From assembly GCA_944326795.1 (NCBI GenBank), contig CALVFJ010000016.1:1-36423 (forward strand): 36,423 nucleotides of DNA, written 5' to 3'. This DNA comes from an uncultured Erysipelotrichaceae bacterium. GTDB taxonomy: Bacteria > Bacillota_I > Bacilli_A > Erysipelotrichales > Erysipelotrichaceae. The notes under the pieces are model-generated. The model made no database searches, was not told the DNA's origin, and was given only the letters and a program-made list of their open reading frames with translations. This document shows, one piece after another, positions 31,852 to 36,423 of this stretch; within the stretch, counting starts at the first letter, position 1, and every line of letters starts with the position of its first letter. The translations under genes were made by a program, and so were the position numbers.

Positions 31852-33109
31852 AAACTATTCTAGCATTGCTACTAGCATCATTGCCATCATCTTAGGATGC
31901 TTATTTTTGTTGCGTCATGAATCATTATATTTTTTGATCAAGATTGGTTTTATCTTATTTGCCGCCTTGTTAAATATCAATCTCTTGTGCCAAATTTTCG
32001 ATAAAAAACATTTTGATCTGCCTAATATCATCTTATTGATTGCTGATTTATTTTTTTTGATCACTACCATCTATCACTTTGAAAAGATCATTCAGCTAAT
32101 TAACATGATCATGGGCATTTGGCTTTTATTTAAAGCTATCGTTCATATCATCGATAGCTATCGATGTAAGATCGATATGATCCATGGCACCATCAATAAC
32201 GCTATTAAAGGCCTTATTGATATCATTATAGGGTTTTCTTTAGTTTTACAACCTGATGGCAAAGCTTGGTTCGTTGCTTTGATCATAGGCATCTATCTCT
32301 TGCTTTTTGGTTTTTTTGATACAATCAGCAAGTTAAGCATGTATCTTCCACCTTATTTGCGACAAATTTACAAAAAACACACTAGCGTATCTTTGCCGGT
32401 CATCATAGATGCAATGATCCCCCAGAATTTTTATTTTTCCGCCAAAAAGTTTTACGCTTCTAATAATCTGCAGTTTTCAAATGATCCAGACAACGATCCT
32501 CCATTAGATCTTGAAGTATTGATCTATTTAAAAGGCAGCGGTCCAGAAGCTCTTGGTCACGTTGATATATCTTTTGATGGCTTAATATATTCTTACGGTT
32601 GCCATGATGCACATCATCGTCATCTAGGCGGAACATTTGGTGATGGTGTCTTGATAATTGCTCCTCGCAATCGTTTCATCAAACAAGCGATGGATGATAA
32701 TAAAATGATCATTAGCTACGGTTTTCATTTAACAGATAAAGAAAAAACAATTATCCAAAAGCGTATCGACGAATTATGCCTAAGAACGATTCCGTGGTCA
32801 TGTGATGCCAAGATCGCTTTAGCAAACGATCAAGATGCGCAAAACATCAATGACTATCCTTCTCGAGTATATAAAGCAGCCAATGCTGCCATGTATAAGT
32901 TTACCAAAGGACGTTTCAAGACCTATTTTGTCTTAAGTACCAACTGCGTATTACTTTCAGATTACTTGATCCGTACTCCTGAATTGAACCTGATAAATCT
33001 TTCAGGTATCGTCACGCCTGGATCATATATAAAATTCCTAAACGAAGAATATCTCCACCATACTTCATTAGTTTGGCGACGTTTGGTCTATAAAAAAAAC
33101 ATGGACTAA
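31832..33109 (+). CDS. Membrane protein (HdeD/DUF308-like) with a putative permuted papain-like C-terminal domain
   Basis: A 425-residue protein. Residues about 10-165 hold six to eight hydrophobic segments of the HdeD/DUF308 type. Residues about 225-400 form a soluble domain with a His followed much later by a Cys: GHVDISFDG (His243) and STNCVLLSDYLI (Cys372). This His-before-Cys order with a beta strand after His and a helix after Cys is typical of circularly permuted NlpC/P60-like peptidases/acyltransferases. An additional cluster CHDAHHRH (257-264) might bind metal. ATG at 31832 lies within the previous gene, with no strong ribosome binding site, so it is probably coupled. Enzymatic function is inferred from pattern only. 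Confidence 0.65.
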   Translation: MRKNIFENYSSIATSIIAIILGCLFLLRHESLYFLIKIGFILFAALLNINLLCQIFDKKHFDLPNIILLIADLFFLITTIYHFEKIIQLINMIMGIWLLFKAIVHIIDSYRCKIDMIHGTINNAIKGLIDIIIGFSLVLQPDGKAWFVALIIGIYLLLFGFFDTISKLSMYLPPYLRQIYKKHTSVSLPVIIDAMIPQNFYFSAKKFYASNNLQFSNDPDNDPPLDLEVLIYLKGSGPEALGHVDISFDGLIYSYGCHDAHHRHLGGTFGDGVLIIAPRNRFIKQAMDDNKMIISYGFHLTDKEKTIIQKRIDELCLRTIPWSCDAKIALANDQDAQNINDYPSRVYKAANAAMYKFTKGRFKTYFVLSTNCVLLSDYLIRTPELNLINLSGIVTPGSYIKFLNEEYLHHTSLVWRRLVYKKNMD

Positions 33110-33130
33110 TCAAACAAGATAGGTTATAAT
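33102..33130 (+). promoter_or_regulatory. Promoter of the fluoride riboswitch transcript
   Basis: TGGACT (-35, 33102-33107), 17-bp spacer, TATAAT (-10, 33125-33130). The predicted start is at about 33137, exactly where the aptamer helix begins. The -35 overlaps the end of the preceding gene. Confidence 0.65.
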
Positions 33131-33136
33131 CTTCAC

Positions 33137-33231
33137 GGGGAATGAAGTTCTCCCTTGGTCGTTGACCTAAACCGCGATATTAGCTGATGGCTTCTGCATG
33201 CTTTTTTATCATGCAGGTCATCAGCTTTTTT
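33137..33231 (+). ncRNA. Fluoride riboswitch (crcB motif) with overlapping intrinsic terminator
   Basis: The aptamer has GGGGAATGAAGTTCTCCC (33137-33154), a small hairpin GGTC-GTT-GACC (33157-33167), the conserved AAACCGC (33169-33175) and GCTGATGGCTTCTGC (33183-33197). The loop GAAG can pair with CTTC of the last segment, forming the diagnostic pseudoknot. The same 3' segment (33182-33199) is also the 5' arm of a terminator: it pairs with ATGCAGGTCATCAGCT (33211-33226), followed by a T-run. Fluoride binding would hold the segment in the aptamer and prevent termination, turning on the downstream antiporter. All conserved fluoride riboswitch elements I know of are present in order. Confidence 0.9.
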
Positions 33232-33252
33232 ATTTCTAAGGAGGATAGAATC

Positions 33253-34437
33253 ATGTTAACATCATTAGCTTATATTTTTATCGTCGGTCTTGCTATGGCT
33301 AGTATCTGTGATAAATTAAAACTTCCAAGGATCATCGGTATGCTATTTACTGGTATCATCTTAGGACCTTATGTCTTAGATCTTTTAGATCCTAACATCT
33401 TAACTATCTCTGCCGATCTTAGGCAGATGGCCTTAGTGATCATCTTATTAAAAGCCGGATTGTCATTAGACCTTAGTGATTTAAAAAAAGTAGGACGTCC
33501 AGCATTGATGATGTCTTTTGTTCCTGCCACTTTTGAGATCATTGGATATATCATCGTTGCGCCATGGCTTTTACATATCAGCGTCTTAGAAGCAGCTTTG
33601 ATCGGTTCGATATTAGCAGCTGTTTCTCCAGCTGTCGTAGTACCACGAATGGTACGATTAATGGATGAAGGATACGGTACCAATAAAAGCATTCCTCAAA
33701 TGATCATGTCTGGAGCCTCATGTGATGACATCTTTGTAATCGTCTTATTTTCAACATTCTTAAGCATGAATCAAGGACAACAGGCTAATTTAAGCAGCTT
33801 TTTGAATATTCCGATATCCATTGCTTCAGGAATCATCATTGGGATCATCGTCGGTTATATCTTGAGCAGCTTTTTTGAATATAACTATCGCCATGGTCAT
33901 CTAATCCGCAATAGCATGAAGATCATCATCATTCTTGCTATTTCCTTTTTCCTATTAGCTCTAGAAGATTACATTACAACTTCTGGCTTGTTAGCCATCG
34001 TTGCCATGGCTTGCACCATTAAACTAAGAAGCATACCTGTCATTTCTCAACGTTTATCAGAAAAATTTGGTAAGTTATGGTTGGCTGCTGAAGTCTTGCT
34101 ATTTGTCTTGGTTGGAGCAGCCGTAGATGTCCGTTACACCTTAACTGCGGGTATCGCAGCGATATTTGTTATCTTATCTGCTTTGTTATTTAGGAGCATC
34201 GGCGTCGCAATATGTATGATAAAAACACCACTTAACCTAAAAGAAAGAGTTTTTTGTATTCTAGCATACCTTCCTAAAGCAACGGTTCAAGCAGCTATCG
34301 GCTCTGTACCACTAGCAGCTGGCGTAGCTTGTGGACAATTAGCATTATCAATTGCCGTCTTAGGTATCTTGATAACTGCTCCGCTTGGCGCCATCGCTAT
34401 TGATGCAACTTTCAAACGCTTATTAATAAAAAAATAA
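33253..34437 (+). CDS. Cation:proton antiporter (CPA family) under fluoride riboswitch control
   Basis: A 394-residue membrane protein with about 12 hydrophobic segments and the sodium/hydrogen exchanger pattern: LKLPRIIGMLFTGIILGPYV near the N-terminus, the ILAAVSPAVVVPRM and SGASCDDIFVIVLF blocks in the region of the transport-site residues, and LPKATVQAAIGSVPLAAG in the C-terminal half. The start at 33253 follows AAGGAGGATAGAATC. A frame open from 33187 runs through the riboswitch terminator and is rejected. Antiporters are among the gene classes known to follow fluoride riboswitches, so it probably protects against fluoride, by pH/ion adjustment or some anion-related transport. No CrcB/Fluc or CLC-F gene is adjacent. 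Confidence 0.9.
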   Translation: MLTSLAYIFIVGLAMASICDKLKLPRIIGMLFTGIILGPYVLDLLDPNILTISADLRQMALVIILLKAGLSLDLSDLKKVGRPALMMSFVPATFEIIGYIIVAPWLLHISVLEAALIGSILAAVSPAVVVPRMVRLMDEGYGTNKSIPQMIMSGASCDDIFVIVLFSTFLSMNQGQQANLSSFLNIPISIASGIIIGIIVGYILSSFFEYNYRHGHLIRNSMKIIIILAISFFLLALEDYITTSGLLAIVAMACTIKLRSIPVISQRLSEKFGKLWLAAEVLLFVLVGAAVDVRYTLTAGIAAIFVILSALLFRSIGVAICMIKTPLNLKERVFCILAYLPKATVQAAIGSVPLAAGVACGQLALSIAVLGILITAPLGAIAIDATFKRLLIKK

Positions 34438-34467: not shown

Positions 34468-34496
34468 TTGACAAAAATTTAACAAATGATTAAAAT
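34468..34496 (+). promoter_or_regulatory. Promoter of the flavin reductase lipoprotein
   Basis: Perfect TTGACA (34468-34473), 17-bp spacer, TAAAAT (34491-34496), 45 bases before the ATG. The AT-rich leader holds GGAGGG just before the start. The closeness to consensus suggests strong expression. Confidence 0.75.
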
Positions 34497-34540: not shown

Positions 34541-36271
34541 ATGAATAAAGTAGTAAAGGCTTGTTTAGCAGGTACGATGTGCCTTAGCTTAGCAGCATGC
34601 TCAACTAGTTCTGATCCAGCTACGACCACTACACCAAGCAGCACTACTGAAGGTGGAACCGTTTATGAAGCAACTGGCAGTGGTTATGGAGGAGAATTAA
34701 ACGTAAAAGTTACCATTGACAATGGTACGATCACCAATATCGAATTAGGTGAAAATCATGAAACTAACGTTGTCATTGATCGTGCTTTCCCTGTTATTGC
34801 AGAAAGAATTATCGAAGCTAACAGTCCAGTAGTTGACAGCGTAACTGCTGCAACTTTCTCATCATATGCTGTTAAATCAGCTGTTGCTGATGCTATGAGC
34901 CAAGCTGGCTTAGAAGCACCTGAAATCACGATGACCACAGCTGACGAAGAAAAACCAGCAACTGAACTAGAACCAGTAACTTGTGATATCGTGATCGTTG
35001 GTGGTGGACCATCTGGTCTTGCTGCTGCTATCGGTGCAAAACAAACTAACCCAGATGCAAATGTAATCGTTGTTGAAAAATTAGATATCCTAAGTGGAAA
35101 CGGTAAGTTCGATATGAACTTCTTCGATCTAATTAATTCTGAAGCTCAAAAAGCTGCTGGTAACGAGAAATATACCGTTAACCAAGTAGAAAACTTCATT
35201 GCTGATAAAGCTGAATCAGGTGAATCAGCTGAAAGAATCGAAGTTTGGGCAAATGAAGCTAACGAACTAGACGCTTGGTTACGCGAAATGGGCGTTGAAT
35301 TAAATTATAACTATGGTGGTACCAACCACTTAGCTGAAGAAGATCAATATTCTGGTGAAGTAATCCAAGCTGGTTTAGAAAAAACAGCTTACGAACTAGG
35401 CGTTGATATCCGTACTGGTACTGCTGGTACTGACCTAGTTATGACTGATGGCACTTGTACTGGTGTAACCGTAACAAATAACGATAACGAAAGCTATACG
35501 ATCAACGCTAGCGCTGTAATCGTTGCAACCGGTGGTTTCTGTGCAAATAAAGAATTACTAGCTGAATATGCTCCAGGATATGAAGTTATGAATACTTCTA
35601 ACCAAATGGGTGCTACTGGTGATTTTGTAAAAGTATTTGAAGAAAACGGCTTCATGATGGAAAACATGGGCAAAATGAGCGTTTTCTCTAATATCATCGT
35701 TCCTCGCCGTGACCTAACTGGCGGTGCCGATATGAACCTATTAGTTAATAAAGAAGGTGCATTATTGAACGATAACATCTCAGGTCTTGATCGTGGAACC
35801 ATGATCCAAGAACAAACTGATGGTGCTGCTTTCTATATCACTGACCAAACTGGTTATGATTCATTCTACCGTATCAGAAAACACGTTGGCTTAGGTTACT
35901 ATGCTCAAGGTGAAACGATCGAAGAATTAGCTGAAGCATTAGGCATCGATCCTGAAGGATTGAAAGCAAGTGTTGAACAATACAACGCTGATGCTGAAGC
36001 TCAAACTGAAAATGCCGTACTTGAAGAAGTACCTAGCCGTCCACTTGATGCTGAAGGCCCATATTATGGTGTTCAAGTTGAAGCTGCAAACCACATGACC
36101 AAAGGTGGTGTCGTAGCTAACGAAAAAGCTCAAGTATTATATGAAGATGGTAGCGTAGTTCCAGGCTTATATGCAGCTGGTGAAGTAACTGCTCAATCTG
36201 GTGGTTATGCACAATCAGTCGTATTTGGTAAAGTAGCAGGAGAAAATGCTGCTGCAAGCTTAAGCGAATAA
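34541..36271 (+). CDS. Extracytoplasmic FMN/FAD fumarate reductase-like lipoprotein
   Basis: A 576-residue exported flavoprotein. The lipobox SLAAC gives lipidated Cys20, followed by a Thr/Ser/Pro linker. The FMN-binding domain (about 40-120) ends in DSVTAATFSS (99-108), close to the D-x-x-T-G-A-T flavinylation signature, so Thr105 is the likely ApbE target; the usual Gly is Ala. From residue 148 a FAD-binding fumarate reductase/succinate dehydrogenase-type domain runs to the end: DIVIVGGGPSGLAAAIGA, and near the C-terminus NHMTKGGVV and VVPGLYAAGEVT. Such proteins accept electrons from extracellular transfer chains and reduce fumarate, urocanate, cinnamate-like or other acceptors. The substrate cannot be told. 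No apbE or fmnA/B genes are in view. Strong promoter and GGAGGG ribosome binding site. The codons look biased as for a highly expressed gene. Confidence 0.9.
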   Translation: MNKVVKACLAGTMCLSLAACSTSSDPATTTTPSSTTEGGTVYEATGSGYGGELNVKVTIDNGTITNIELGENHETNVVIDRAFPVIAERIIEANSPVVDSVTAATFSSYAVKSAVADAMSQAGLEAPEITMTTADEEKPATELEPVTCDIVIVGGGPSGLAAAIGAKQTNPDANVIVVEKLDILSGNGKFDMNFFDLINSEAQKAAGNEKYTVNQVENFIADKAESGESAERIEVWANEANELDAWLREMGVELNYNYGGTNHLAEEDQYSGEVIQAGLEKTAYELGVDIRTGTAGTDLVMTDGTCTGVTVTNNDNESYTINASAVIVATGGFCANKELLAEYAPGYEVMNTSNQMGATGDFVKVFEENGFMMENMGKMSVFSNIIVPRRDLTGGADMNLLVNKEGALLNDNISGLDRGTMIQEQTDGAAFYITDQTGYDSFYRIRKHVGLGYYAQGETIEELAEALGIDPEGLKASVEQYNADAEAQTENAVLEEVPSRPLDAEGPYYGVQVEAANHMTKGGVVANEKAQVLYEDGSVVPGLYAAGEVTAQSGGYAQSVVFGKVAGENAAASLSE

Positions 36272-36279
36272 GCTTATCA

Positions 36280-36423
36280 ATAGAGTAGAGGGAAAATAAA
36301 TTTCGCCCCTCTCATTGCACCGTACGTACGGTTCTCGTATACGGCGCTACATTTATATGTTAATTTACAACTACCTTAGATAGTATTTAAGGGGATTGAC
36401 CAGTCCTGGCCGATTCCCTTTTC
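36280..36423 (-). mobile_element. 3' end of a group II intron (domains V and VI), minus strand, truncated by the window edge
   Basis: On the minus strand a 34-nt domain V (36348-36315) reads AGCGCCGTATACG then AGAAC then CGTACGTACGGTGCAA. Its basal 8-bp helix includes the AGC triad with the conserved G-U wobble, and a 2-nt CG bulge precedes the upper stem. Domain VI follows: GAGAGGGG pairs with CCTCT and CTC around a bulged A (36286), the branch point. The intron end then falls at about 36280, 6 nt beyond the branch A, with the usual AT ending. The reverse transcriptase gene and 5' part lie right of the window. It is inserted just after the flavin reductase gene, opposite to it. Confidence 0.8.
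36389..36422. other. Long hairpin at the right edge
   Basis: AAGGGGATTGACCAG (36389-36403) pairs with CTGGCCGATTCCCTT (36406-36420) with one mismatch, followed by TT on the plus strand. It could be a plus-strand terminator or part of intron domain IV. The truncated edge prevents a decision. Confidence 0.45.

What the first reader, a model, noticed from the sequence alone, without database searches (positions are those of the whole stretch)
33102..34437. Fluoride riboswitch controlling a cation/proton antiporter with no CrcB or CLC-F nearby
The conserved aptamer segments (GATG-like loop with GTTC, AAACCGC, GCTGATGGCTTCTGC), the small GGTC/GACC hairpin and a pseudoknot complementarity are all present. 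The promoter is placed to start transcription at the aptamer. The 3' conserved segment doubles as the 5' arm of a terminator, giving a clear on-switch mechanism. The regulated gene is an antiporter, suggesting that this protein itself takes part in fluoride resistance, alone or beside a distant channel.
Basis: partly seen in the sequence, partly recalled or inferred. Interest (0 to 1): 0.75.

Follow-up and report, generated by a model that had tools for sequence, protein, structure and literature searches.

The report
Fluoride switch driving an NHA2-type exchanger
A fluoride-sensing type of RNA switch sits directly in front of a bacterial gene for a membrane exchanger whose closest solved relative is the animal protein NHA2; in the genomes searched here, those with this exchanger almost never carry the fluoride channel CrcB, so the exchanger, predicted to be switched on by fluoride, likely takes that channel's place in fluoride resistance.

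Summary
Rfam RF01734 (Fluoride) matches 33129-33203 at 41.0 bits (cut-off 34, E 3.7e-8), with a promoter-like site, a pseudoknot and a terminator that shares bases with the aptamer. The gene starts at 33253 and encodes a 394-aa PF00999 exchanger. The 81%-complete genome holds one fluoride riboswitch, no CrcB and no CLC. Riboswitch-driven Na+/H+ antiporters are already in print, so this is a new member of a known kind. I add three things. (1) The exchanger is of SLC9B/NHA2 type: the Glu of the NHA2-specific salt bridge is kept in 184 of 184 clade rows and in 0 of 20 paralogues. (2) Fluoride riboswitches precede it in 104 of 115 genomes of the window's order, 50 of 71 genes in a second order, and 5 of 5 plasmid-record loci opened, including Fusobacteriota and a cyanobacterium; 0 of 20 paralogue loci have one. 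(3) It excludes the Fluc channel CrcB: 0 of 30 and 0 of 38 CrcB genomes carry it, although 115 of 315 and 70 of 216 genomes do. It does not exclude CLC-F, and 134 of 315 genomes hold none of the three. Fluoride resistance in place of Fluc is the best reading; the transported ion is untested.

The parts
33102..33130 (+). promoter-like site, TGGACT - 17 nt - TATAAT; the first hexamer overlaps the stop codon of the upstream gene
   Evidence: 10 of 12 matches; consensus match only, number of sites not above shuffles
33129..33203 (+). fluoride riboswitch aptamer, RF01734
   Evidence: 41.0 bits, E 3.7e-8; own model R1 68.6 bits (the window was one of its 40 training rows)
33144..33148 (+). 5' side of the pseudoknot (GAAGT)
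   Evidence: helix 2, 100% of cells paired
33157..33167 (+). small hairpin GGTC/GACC inside the aptamer
33190..33194 (+). 3' side of the pseudoknot (GCTTC), also part of the terminator's 5' arm
33182..33231 (+). intrinsic terminator hairpin and T-run that competes with the aptamer
   Evidence: z -5.8; by a simple fold criterion an equivalent hairpin is found in 27 of 30 relatives tested, of 73 with a riboswitch
33238..33244 (+). ribosome-binding site AAGGAGG
   Evidence: read
33253..34437 (+). gene of a 394-aa SLC9B/NHA2-type cation/proton exchanger (PF00999)

Best explanation
A fluoride riboswitch (RF01734) lies directly upstream of a gene for an SLC9B/NHA2-type cation/proton exchanger and would switch that gene on when it binds fluoride, so that the exchanger likely serves as this bacterium's fluoride-resistance transporter in place of the Fluc (CrcB) channel. 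Shown: the aptamer, the overlapping terminator, the gene, the family and its NHA2 residues, the riboswitch linkage across the clade, and the exclusion of CrcB in the genomes searched. Inferred: fluoride stabilises the pseudoknotted aptamer, the shared strand cannot form the terminator, and transcription reads into the gene. Inferred, with less certainty: the exchanger runs electroneutral Na+ (or K+)/H+ exchange with protons moving in, which lowers the pH difference that traps HF as F- (F- accumulates about tenfold per unit of pH difference). In 71 of 115 antiporter genomes of the window's order it would do this without CrcB or any CLC; in some others it sits beside a CLC-F exporter.
For: Aptamer; terminator, with 27 of 30 relatives alike (30 of 73 tested). 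Own genome: one RF01734, no PF02537, no PF00654, one PF00999. Linkage: 104 of 115 antiporter genomes of the order have RF01734 32-246 nt upstream on the same strand, and 104 of the 120 riboswitch matches found in 315 genomes precede this gene; 50 of 71 genes in a second order; 74 of the 78 readable of 80 loci, one of them below the Rfam cut-off; 5 of 5 plasmid-record loci opened; control: 0 of 20 PF00999 paralogue loci. CrcB exclusion: 0 of 30 CrcB genomes carry the antiporter although 115 of 315 genomes do (one-sided Fisher 5e-7); 0 of 38 although 70 of 216 do (6e-8); 1 of 50 antiporter genomes behind my loci has CrcB. CrcB and CLC of any kind by contrast co-occur more than expected (23 of 30, expected 9.8). 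71 of 115 antiporter genomes have neither CrcB nor any CLC. Residues: Glu95 and Arg314 align with Glu214 and Arg431, and Asp158/Asp159 with Asp277/Asp278, of bison NHA2 (salt bridge and aspartates named in PMC8850199, passages). Glu95 is kept in 184 of 184 clade rows and in 0 of 20 paralogues.
Against: No fluoride experiment. The window's P3 has few pairs. 21 of 71 second-order genes have no detectable riboswitch in the stretch held (585-600 nt upstream, 154 nt for one), nor do 10 of 115 in the window's order, one more being split over contigs. 134 of 315 genomes of the order have neither antiporter, CrcB nor any CLC, among them a 99%-complete genome of the window's own genus (G238), so a fluoride transporter is not needed by all relatives and the case for a needed substitute is weaker. 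CLC-F is not excluded: 8 of 14 signature-bearing CLC-F genomes also hold the antiporter. Related genomes are not independent, so the Fisher values overstate certainty; both states do occur in different genomes within three genera (g7, g36, g79). The NHA2 exchange residues are kept, so nothing in the sequence shows fluoride transport. The direction of exchange is a guess.
Confidence: 0.62

Rival explanations
1. The protein exports fluoride itself (F- or HF, coupled to H+ or Na+), as a third bacterial fluoride exporter beside Fluc and CLC-F.
For: Exclusion of CrcB in two orders is what an interchangeable exporter would give; Fluc and CLC-F are themselves described as usually mutually exclusive (PMC11139923, section read). 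71 of 115 hosts in the window's order have neither CrcB nor any CLC. One insect SLC9B protein was proposed to be an H+-Cl- cotransporter (PMC9174904, passage).
Against: The NHA2 cation-exchange site is kept. The clade co-occurs with CLC-F in 8 of 14 CLC-F genomes. No anion site is recognisable.
Confidence: 0.25
2. General acid-load relief: HF entry acidifies the cell and the exchanger pumps protons out, a side service to fluoride resistance rather than a substitute for an exporter.
For: This is the review's reading of riboswitch-linked Na+/H+ antiporters (PMC11139923, passages).
Against: It does not predict exclusion of CrcB, nor hosts with no CrcB and no CLC at all. Raising the inner pH would trap more fluoride.
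Confidence: 0.2
3. The exclusion of CrcB is an accident of ancestry or habitat, and the riboswitch linkage alone is real.
For: Genomes of an order are related; CrcB is uncommon in both orders (30 of 315, 38 of 216); 134 of 315 genomes have neither antiporter, CrcB nor any CLC, and 108 of 216 in the second order have neither antiporter nor CrcB (CLC not searched there).
Against: Seen in two orders, with both states inside three genera, while CrcB and CLC co-occur freely.
Confidence: 0.18

Closest known systems
Fluoride riboswitch class (RF01734, crcB motif RNA)
   Same: Aptamer, pseudoknot and overlapping terminator; over the curated cut-off.
   Different: Short P3 and an extra small hairpin in the window's copy.
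Riboswitch-controlled Na+/H+ antiporters (attributed to Baker et al. 2012 in PMC11139923; C. difficile CLC plus NhaP-type operon in PMC11477304)
   Same: Same gene class under the same RNA.
   Different: Here the antiporter stands alone, with no CLC or Fluc in the genome held. The passages I read do not assign it to SLC9B/NHA2 type or report exclusion with CrcB.
SLC9B2/NHA2
   Same: Best sequence match among solved chains (E 5e-36), best Foldseek match (E 1.9e-17, 29% identity), same Asp-Asp and Glu-Arg pairs.
   Different: Bacterial, 394 aa without the N-terminal extension, behind a fluoride riboswitch, about 30% identical.
Fluc (CrcB) and CLC-F fluoride exporters
   Same: Riboswitch-controlled fluoride-resistance genes (PMC11139923).
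   Different: Other protein families; neither is in the genome held.

Membership tests
RF01734 fluoride riboswitch | covariance-model score over the curated cut-off | tested here: met
   41.0 against 34 bits, all 64 positions
RF01734 fluoride riboswitch | loop-to-3' pseudoknot | tested here: met
   5 pairs, 100% of cells standard in 40 sequences, one pair with a change on both sides
RF01734 fluoride riboswitch | expression platform that competes with the aptamer | tested here: met
   terminator 33182-33231; 27 of 30 relatives by a simple fold criterion without shuffle control
RF01734 fluoride riboswitch | binds fluoride with Mg2+ and changes transcription | not testable with these tools
   needs in-line probing or in vitro termination
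PF00999 cation/proton exchanger | Pfam score over cut-off and exchanger fold | tested here: met
SLC9B/NHA2 type | NHA2-specific Glu-Arg salt-bridge pair with the Asp-Asp motif | tested here: met
   E95, R314, D158, D159 align with E214, R431, D277, D278; E95 in 184 of 184 clade rows, in 0 of 20 paralogues
SLC9B/NHA2 type | tree position with animal SLC9B against other exchangers | not tested
   no animal sequence was put in the tree; the bacterial clade is separated from 21 other exchangers with FastTree support 98
SLC9B/NHA2 type | 14 membrane helices with the extra N-terminal helix | tested here: not met
   the 394-aa model aligns with NHA2 from its residue 113 on; the extension before it is absent
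SLC9B/NHA2 type | electroneutral Na+/H+ exchange | not testable with these tools
   needs reconstituted protein
Fluc (CrcB) | PF02537 match | tested here: not met
   the gene matches PF00999 alone; no PF02537 in the genome held
CLC-F | PF00654 match with GREGT/V and GEVTP signatures | tested here: not met
   no PF00654 in the gene or in the genome held; signatures as given in PMC11139923

The most novel reading that the evidence does not exclude
Bacterial SLC9B/NHA2-type proteins are a third, widespread family of fluoride-resistance transporters that moves fluoride or HF itself and replaces Fluc; fluoride handling is the clade's ancestral job, and the animal NHA proteins descend from that stock.
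Probability: 0.2. Interest if true: 0.88.

Novelty: new member of a known kind. Interest (0 to 1): 0.5.

Why it matters
Fluoride resistance in bacteria is described as resting on Fluc and CLC-F, with riboswitch-linked antiporters read as pH helpers. A clade that is largely under fluoride riboswitches, that excludes Fluc in the two orders searched, and that in 71 of 115 host genomes of the window's order stands without CrcB or any CLC suggests that the antiporter does the main job there. That is directly testable in such hosts. It also ties a human exchanger family, SLC9B, to a bacterial clade with a clear physiological trigger.

Tried and rejected
Rejected: that the gene starts at ATG 33187 (in-frame, but inside the aptamer and terminator; homologues begin at 33253). 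That the antiporter also excludes CLC: any CLC occurs in 44 of 115 antiporter genomes, and 14 genomes with the CLC-F signature include 8 with the antiporter. That the association belongs to PF00999 exchangers in general: a 28% identical homologue (L097) has no riboswitch match and neither have the 20 paralogue loci L202-L221. Folding energy of the aptamer alone is not below shuffles (z 0.21), as expected where a pseudoknot is not modelled.

Rows dropped and limits: one search kept the best 80 of 235 loci. L054 (reading frame of 134 aa) and two partial proteins under 370 aa were left out of the alignment and tree. L002, L011 and L153 have too little upstream DNA. G314 (28% identity) was dropped from the antiporter count (116 to 115). 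CrcB hits below the cut-off in G251, G287 and G531 were not counted as CrcB. My locus sets overlap: four proteins occur in both the 80-locus set and the order sets, so the linkage counts are not fully independent, and model R1 was built from some of the same loci. The tree is not a random sample: I fetched ten window-order antiporters without riboswitch on purpose, and L189 is labelled there without riboswitch although one search finds one (corrected, 153 rows have it and 33 do not). One search examined 60 CLC loci, covering 28 of the 44 antiporter genomes with a CLC; of the 14 called CLC-F, 11 have GREGT/V plus GEVTP as published and three (G045, G046, G048) have GKEGV plus GEVTP. Counting the strict 11 alone, 5 hold the antiporter. 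G047, G185 and G203 show partial or no signatures and may be CLC-F too; the broken CLC of G013 was not among the 60. The largest CLC class was sampled by 5 loci, all with chloride-type motifs. CLC was not searched in the second order.

Literature: Baker et al. 2012 is not held and is cited through the review. No paper holding 'fluoride', 'SLC9B' and 'riboswitch' together was found; searches showed none that states exclusion of CrcB by the antiporter, judged from listings and from the passages of nine papers that I read. The library is limited.

Full report
What is there. The RNA at 33129-33203 is a fluoride riboswitch by Rfam's own cut-off (41.0 against 34 bits, E 3.7e-8). A promoter-like site ends at 33130, so the transcript would begin at about the first base of the aptamer's P1. 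The 3' conserved segment is the 5' arm of a hairpin (33182-33226) with a T-run to 33231; folded alone it gives -23.5 kcal/mol, z -5.8. Aptamer and terminator use the same bases, so only one can form; that is the layout of a transcriptional on-switch. In 27 of 30 relatives tested (of 73 with a riboswitch) the same conserved segment pairs into a hairpin before a T-run by a simple fold criterion, without a shuffle control. The window's P3 helix is short, a mild point against full function. Nothing here measures fluoride binding.

How far the riboswitch goes with it. In 80 homologous loci (the best of 235; 63-91% identity), 73 have RF01734 over the cut-off upstream on the same strand, one of them about 730 nt away, and one more has it below the cut-off; two are cut too short, four have none. 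In the window's order, 104 of 115 antiporter genomes have the riboswitch 32-246 nt upstream on the same strand, median 47.5 nt, and 104 of 120 riboswitch matches in 315 genomes are of this kind; one more genome (G240) has the two on different contigs. In a second order (centred on a Cuneatibacter genome) 50 of 71 genes have it, counting one truncated and one weak match: 9 of 9 at 60% identity or more, 35 of 47 at 50-60%, 5 of 13 at 40-50%, 1 of 2 below; Rfam found no more in 20 of the 21 others. These sets share a few genomes. Five of the six full-length homologues on plasmid records, 35-54% identical, were opened: Acetoanaerobium, Peptoclostridium, Ilyobacter, Cetobacterium and the cyanobacterium Leptolyngbya. 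All five have RF01734 over the cut-off upstream on the same strand; in Peptoclostridium a CBS-domain gene lies between. As a control, none of 20 paralogue loci has a match. On the tree, rows without a riboswitch are scattered over 29 small groups (28 after correcting L189), and the deepest branch carries it; this suggests an ancestor that had it and repeated loss, though the sample was not random.

Fluoride exporters. The own genome (1.44 Mb, 81% complete) has no CrcB and no CLC of any kind and one PF00999 protein, this one. A same-genus genome 96% complete (G237) has antiporter and riboswitch and neither exporter; another, 99% complete (G238), has none of the four. In the order, 30 of 315 genomes have CrcB over the cut-off, and none of these has the antiporter (expected 11; one-sided Fisher 5e-7). 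In the second order, 38 of 216 have CrcB, again none with the antiporter (expected 12; 6e-8). Of 50 antiporter-bearing genomes reached through my loci, one has CrcB (L003's genome). Fisher tests ignore ancestry; still, both states occur in different genomes inside genera g7, g36 and g79, and CrcB and CLC co-occur more than expected (23 of 30). Against a simple 'every cell needs one' reading, 134 of 315 genomes of the order have neither antiporter, CrcB nor any CLC. Of the 115 antiporter genomes 71 have neither CrcB nor any CLC; among the 78 at least 90% complete and at most 5% contaminated, 44. By the CLC-F signatures quoted in PMC11139923 (section read), 14 of 60 CLC loci examined are CLC-F (11 strictly, three with GKEGV), 8 of them in antiporter genomes. 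One such pair is adjacent behind one riboswitch (L082), as reported for C. difficile (PMC11477304, passages). Hence the antiporter excludes Fluc but can work beside CLC-F.

What is known. PMC11139923 (passages and section 11) states that after the exporters the next most common riboswitch-linked genes are Na+/H+ antiporters, reads them as pH homeostasis, and says that about 15% of Flucs and 30% of CLC-Fs are under riboswitches, and that Fluc and CLC-F are usually mutually exclusive. So the finding as such is not new. The linkage seen here is tighter than those figures, though my sets are not the same survey.

Mechanism. Shown: RNA, gene, family, linkage, exclusion in the genomes searched. Inferred: fluoride relieves termination. 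Inferred with less certainty: the protein exchanges Na+ or K+ for H+ with protons entering, which lowers the trapping of HF as F-; this fits a substitute for Fluc better than proton extrusion does. Direct fluoride transport is not excluded, and one insect SLC9B protein was proposed to be an H+-Cl- cotransporter; the review that reports this saw no residue changes that would favour chloride in the model it examined (PMC9174904, passages).

Verdict. Observation confirmed; interpretation supported in outline; a new member of a known kind, with a comparative pattern that I did not find stated in the papers searched.

Noticed in passing
window 36280-36349 (-): Group II intron end (RF00029, 41.4 bits against 40) near the window's edge.
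   Followed up: no
plasmid records H7-H40 (not opened): 798 plasmid records, mostly Klebsiella and Escherichia, match the antiporter, 6 over most of its length; the 34 rows listed from H7 on match only the C-terminal 151 residues (244-394, 53.6% identity), mostly annotated 'cation:proton antiporter': what looks like a truncated relative spread on plasmids. Described only.
   Followed up: no
L039 2895-2983, L046 2904-2988: A GA-cis RNA (RF02987, 96.5 and 79.4 bits) sits between the fluoride riboswitch and the antiporter start in two loci.
   Followed up: no
L088 2113-2186 (-), and the like locus L087: In two genomes that carry CrcB (G090, G061) a fluoride riboswitch match of 44 bits lies before a gene pair whose first member is weakly NifU-like (below cut-off) and whose second is GGGtGRT (PF14057), not before CrcB (Pfam run on L088 only).
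   Followed up: partly
L086 859-930 (-): A genome of the window's own genus (G239) has a strong fluoride riboswitch match with no reading frame of 110 aa or more in the 858 bases behind it and no detectable antiporter.
   Followed up: partly
L223 2320-2380 and 2471-2884: In Peptoclostridium acidaminophilum a CBS-domain gene lies between the fluoride riboswitch and the antiporter.
   Followed up: no
MT837274.1 5470-6654: An unannotated 7.3-kb 'Bacteriophage sp.' record from human faeces holds a full-length 65% identical antiporter; possibly bacterial DNA.
   Followed up: no
window 34541-36271 (+): Next gene downstream: a flavoprotein with FMN-binding and FAD-binding domains, nearest to the flavocytochrome c model but below its cut-off, with its own promoter-like site at 34468-34496, probably not in the switch's operon.
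   Followed up: no
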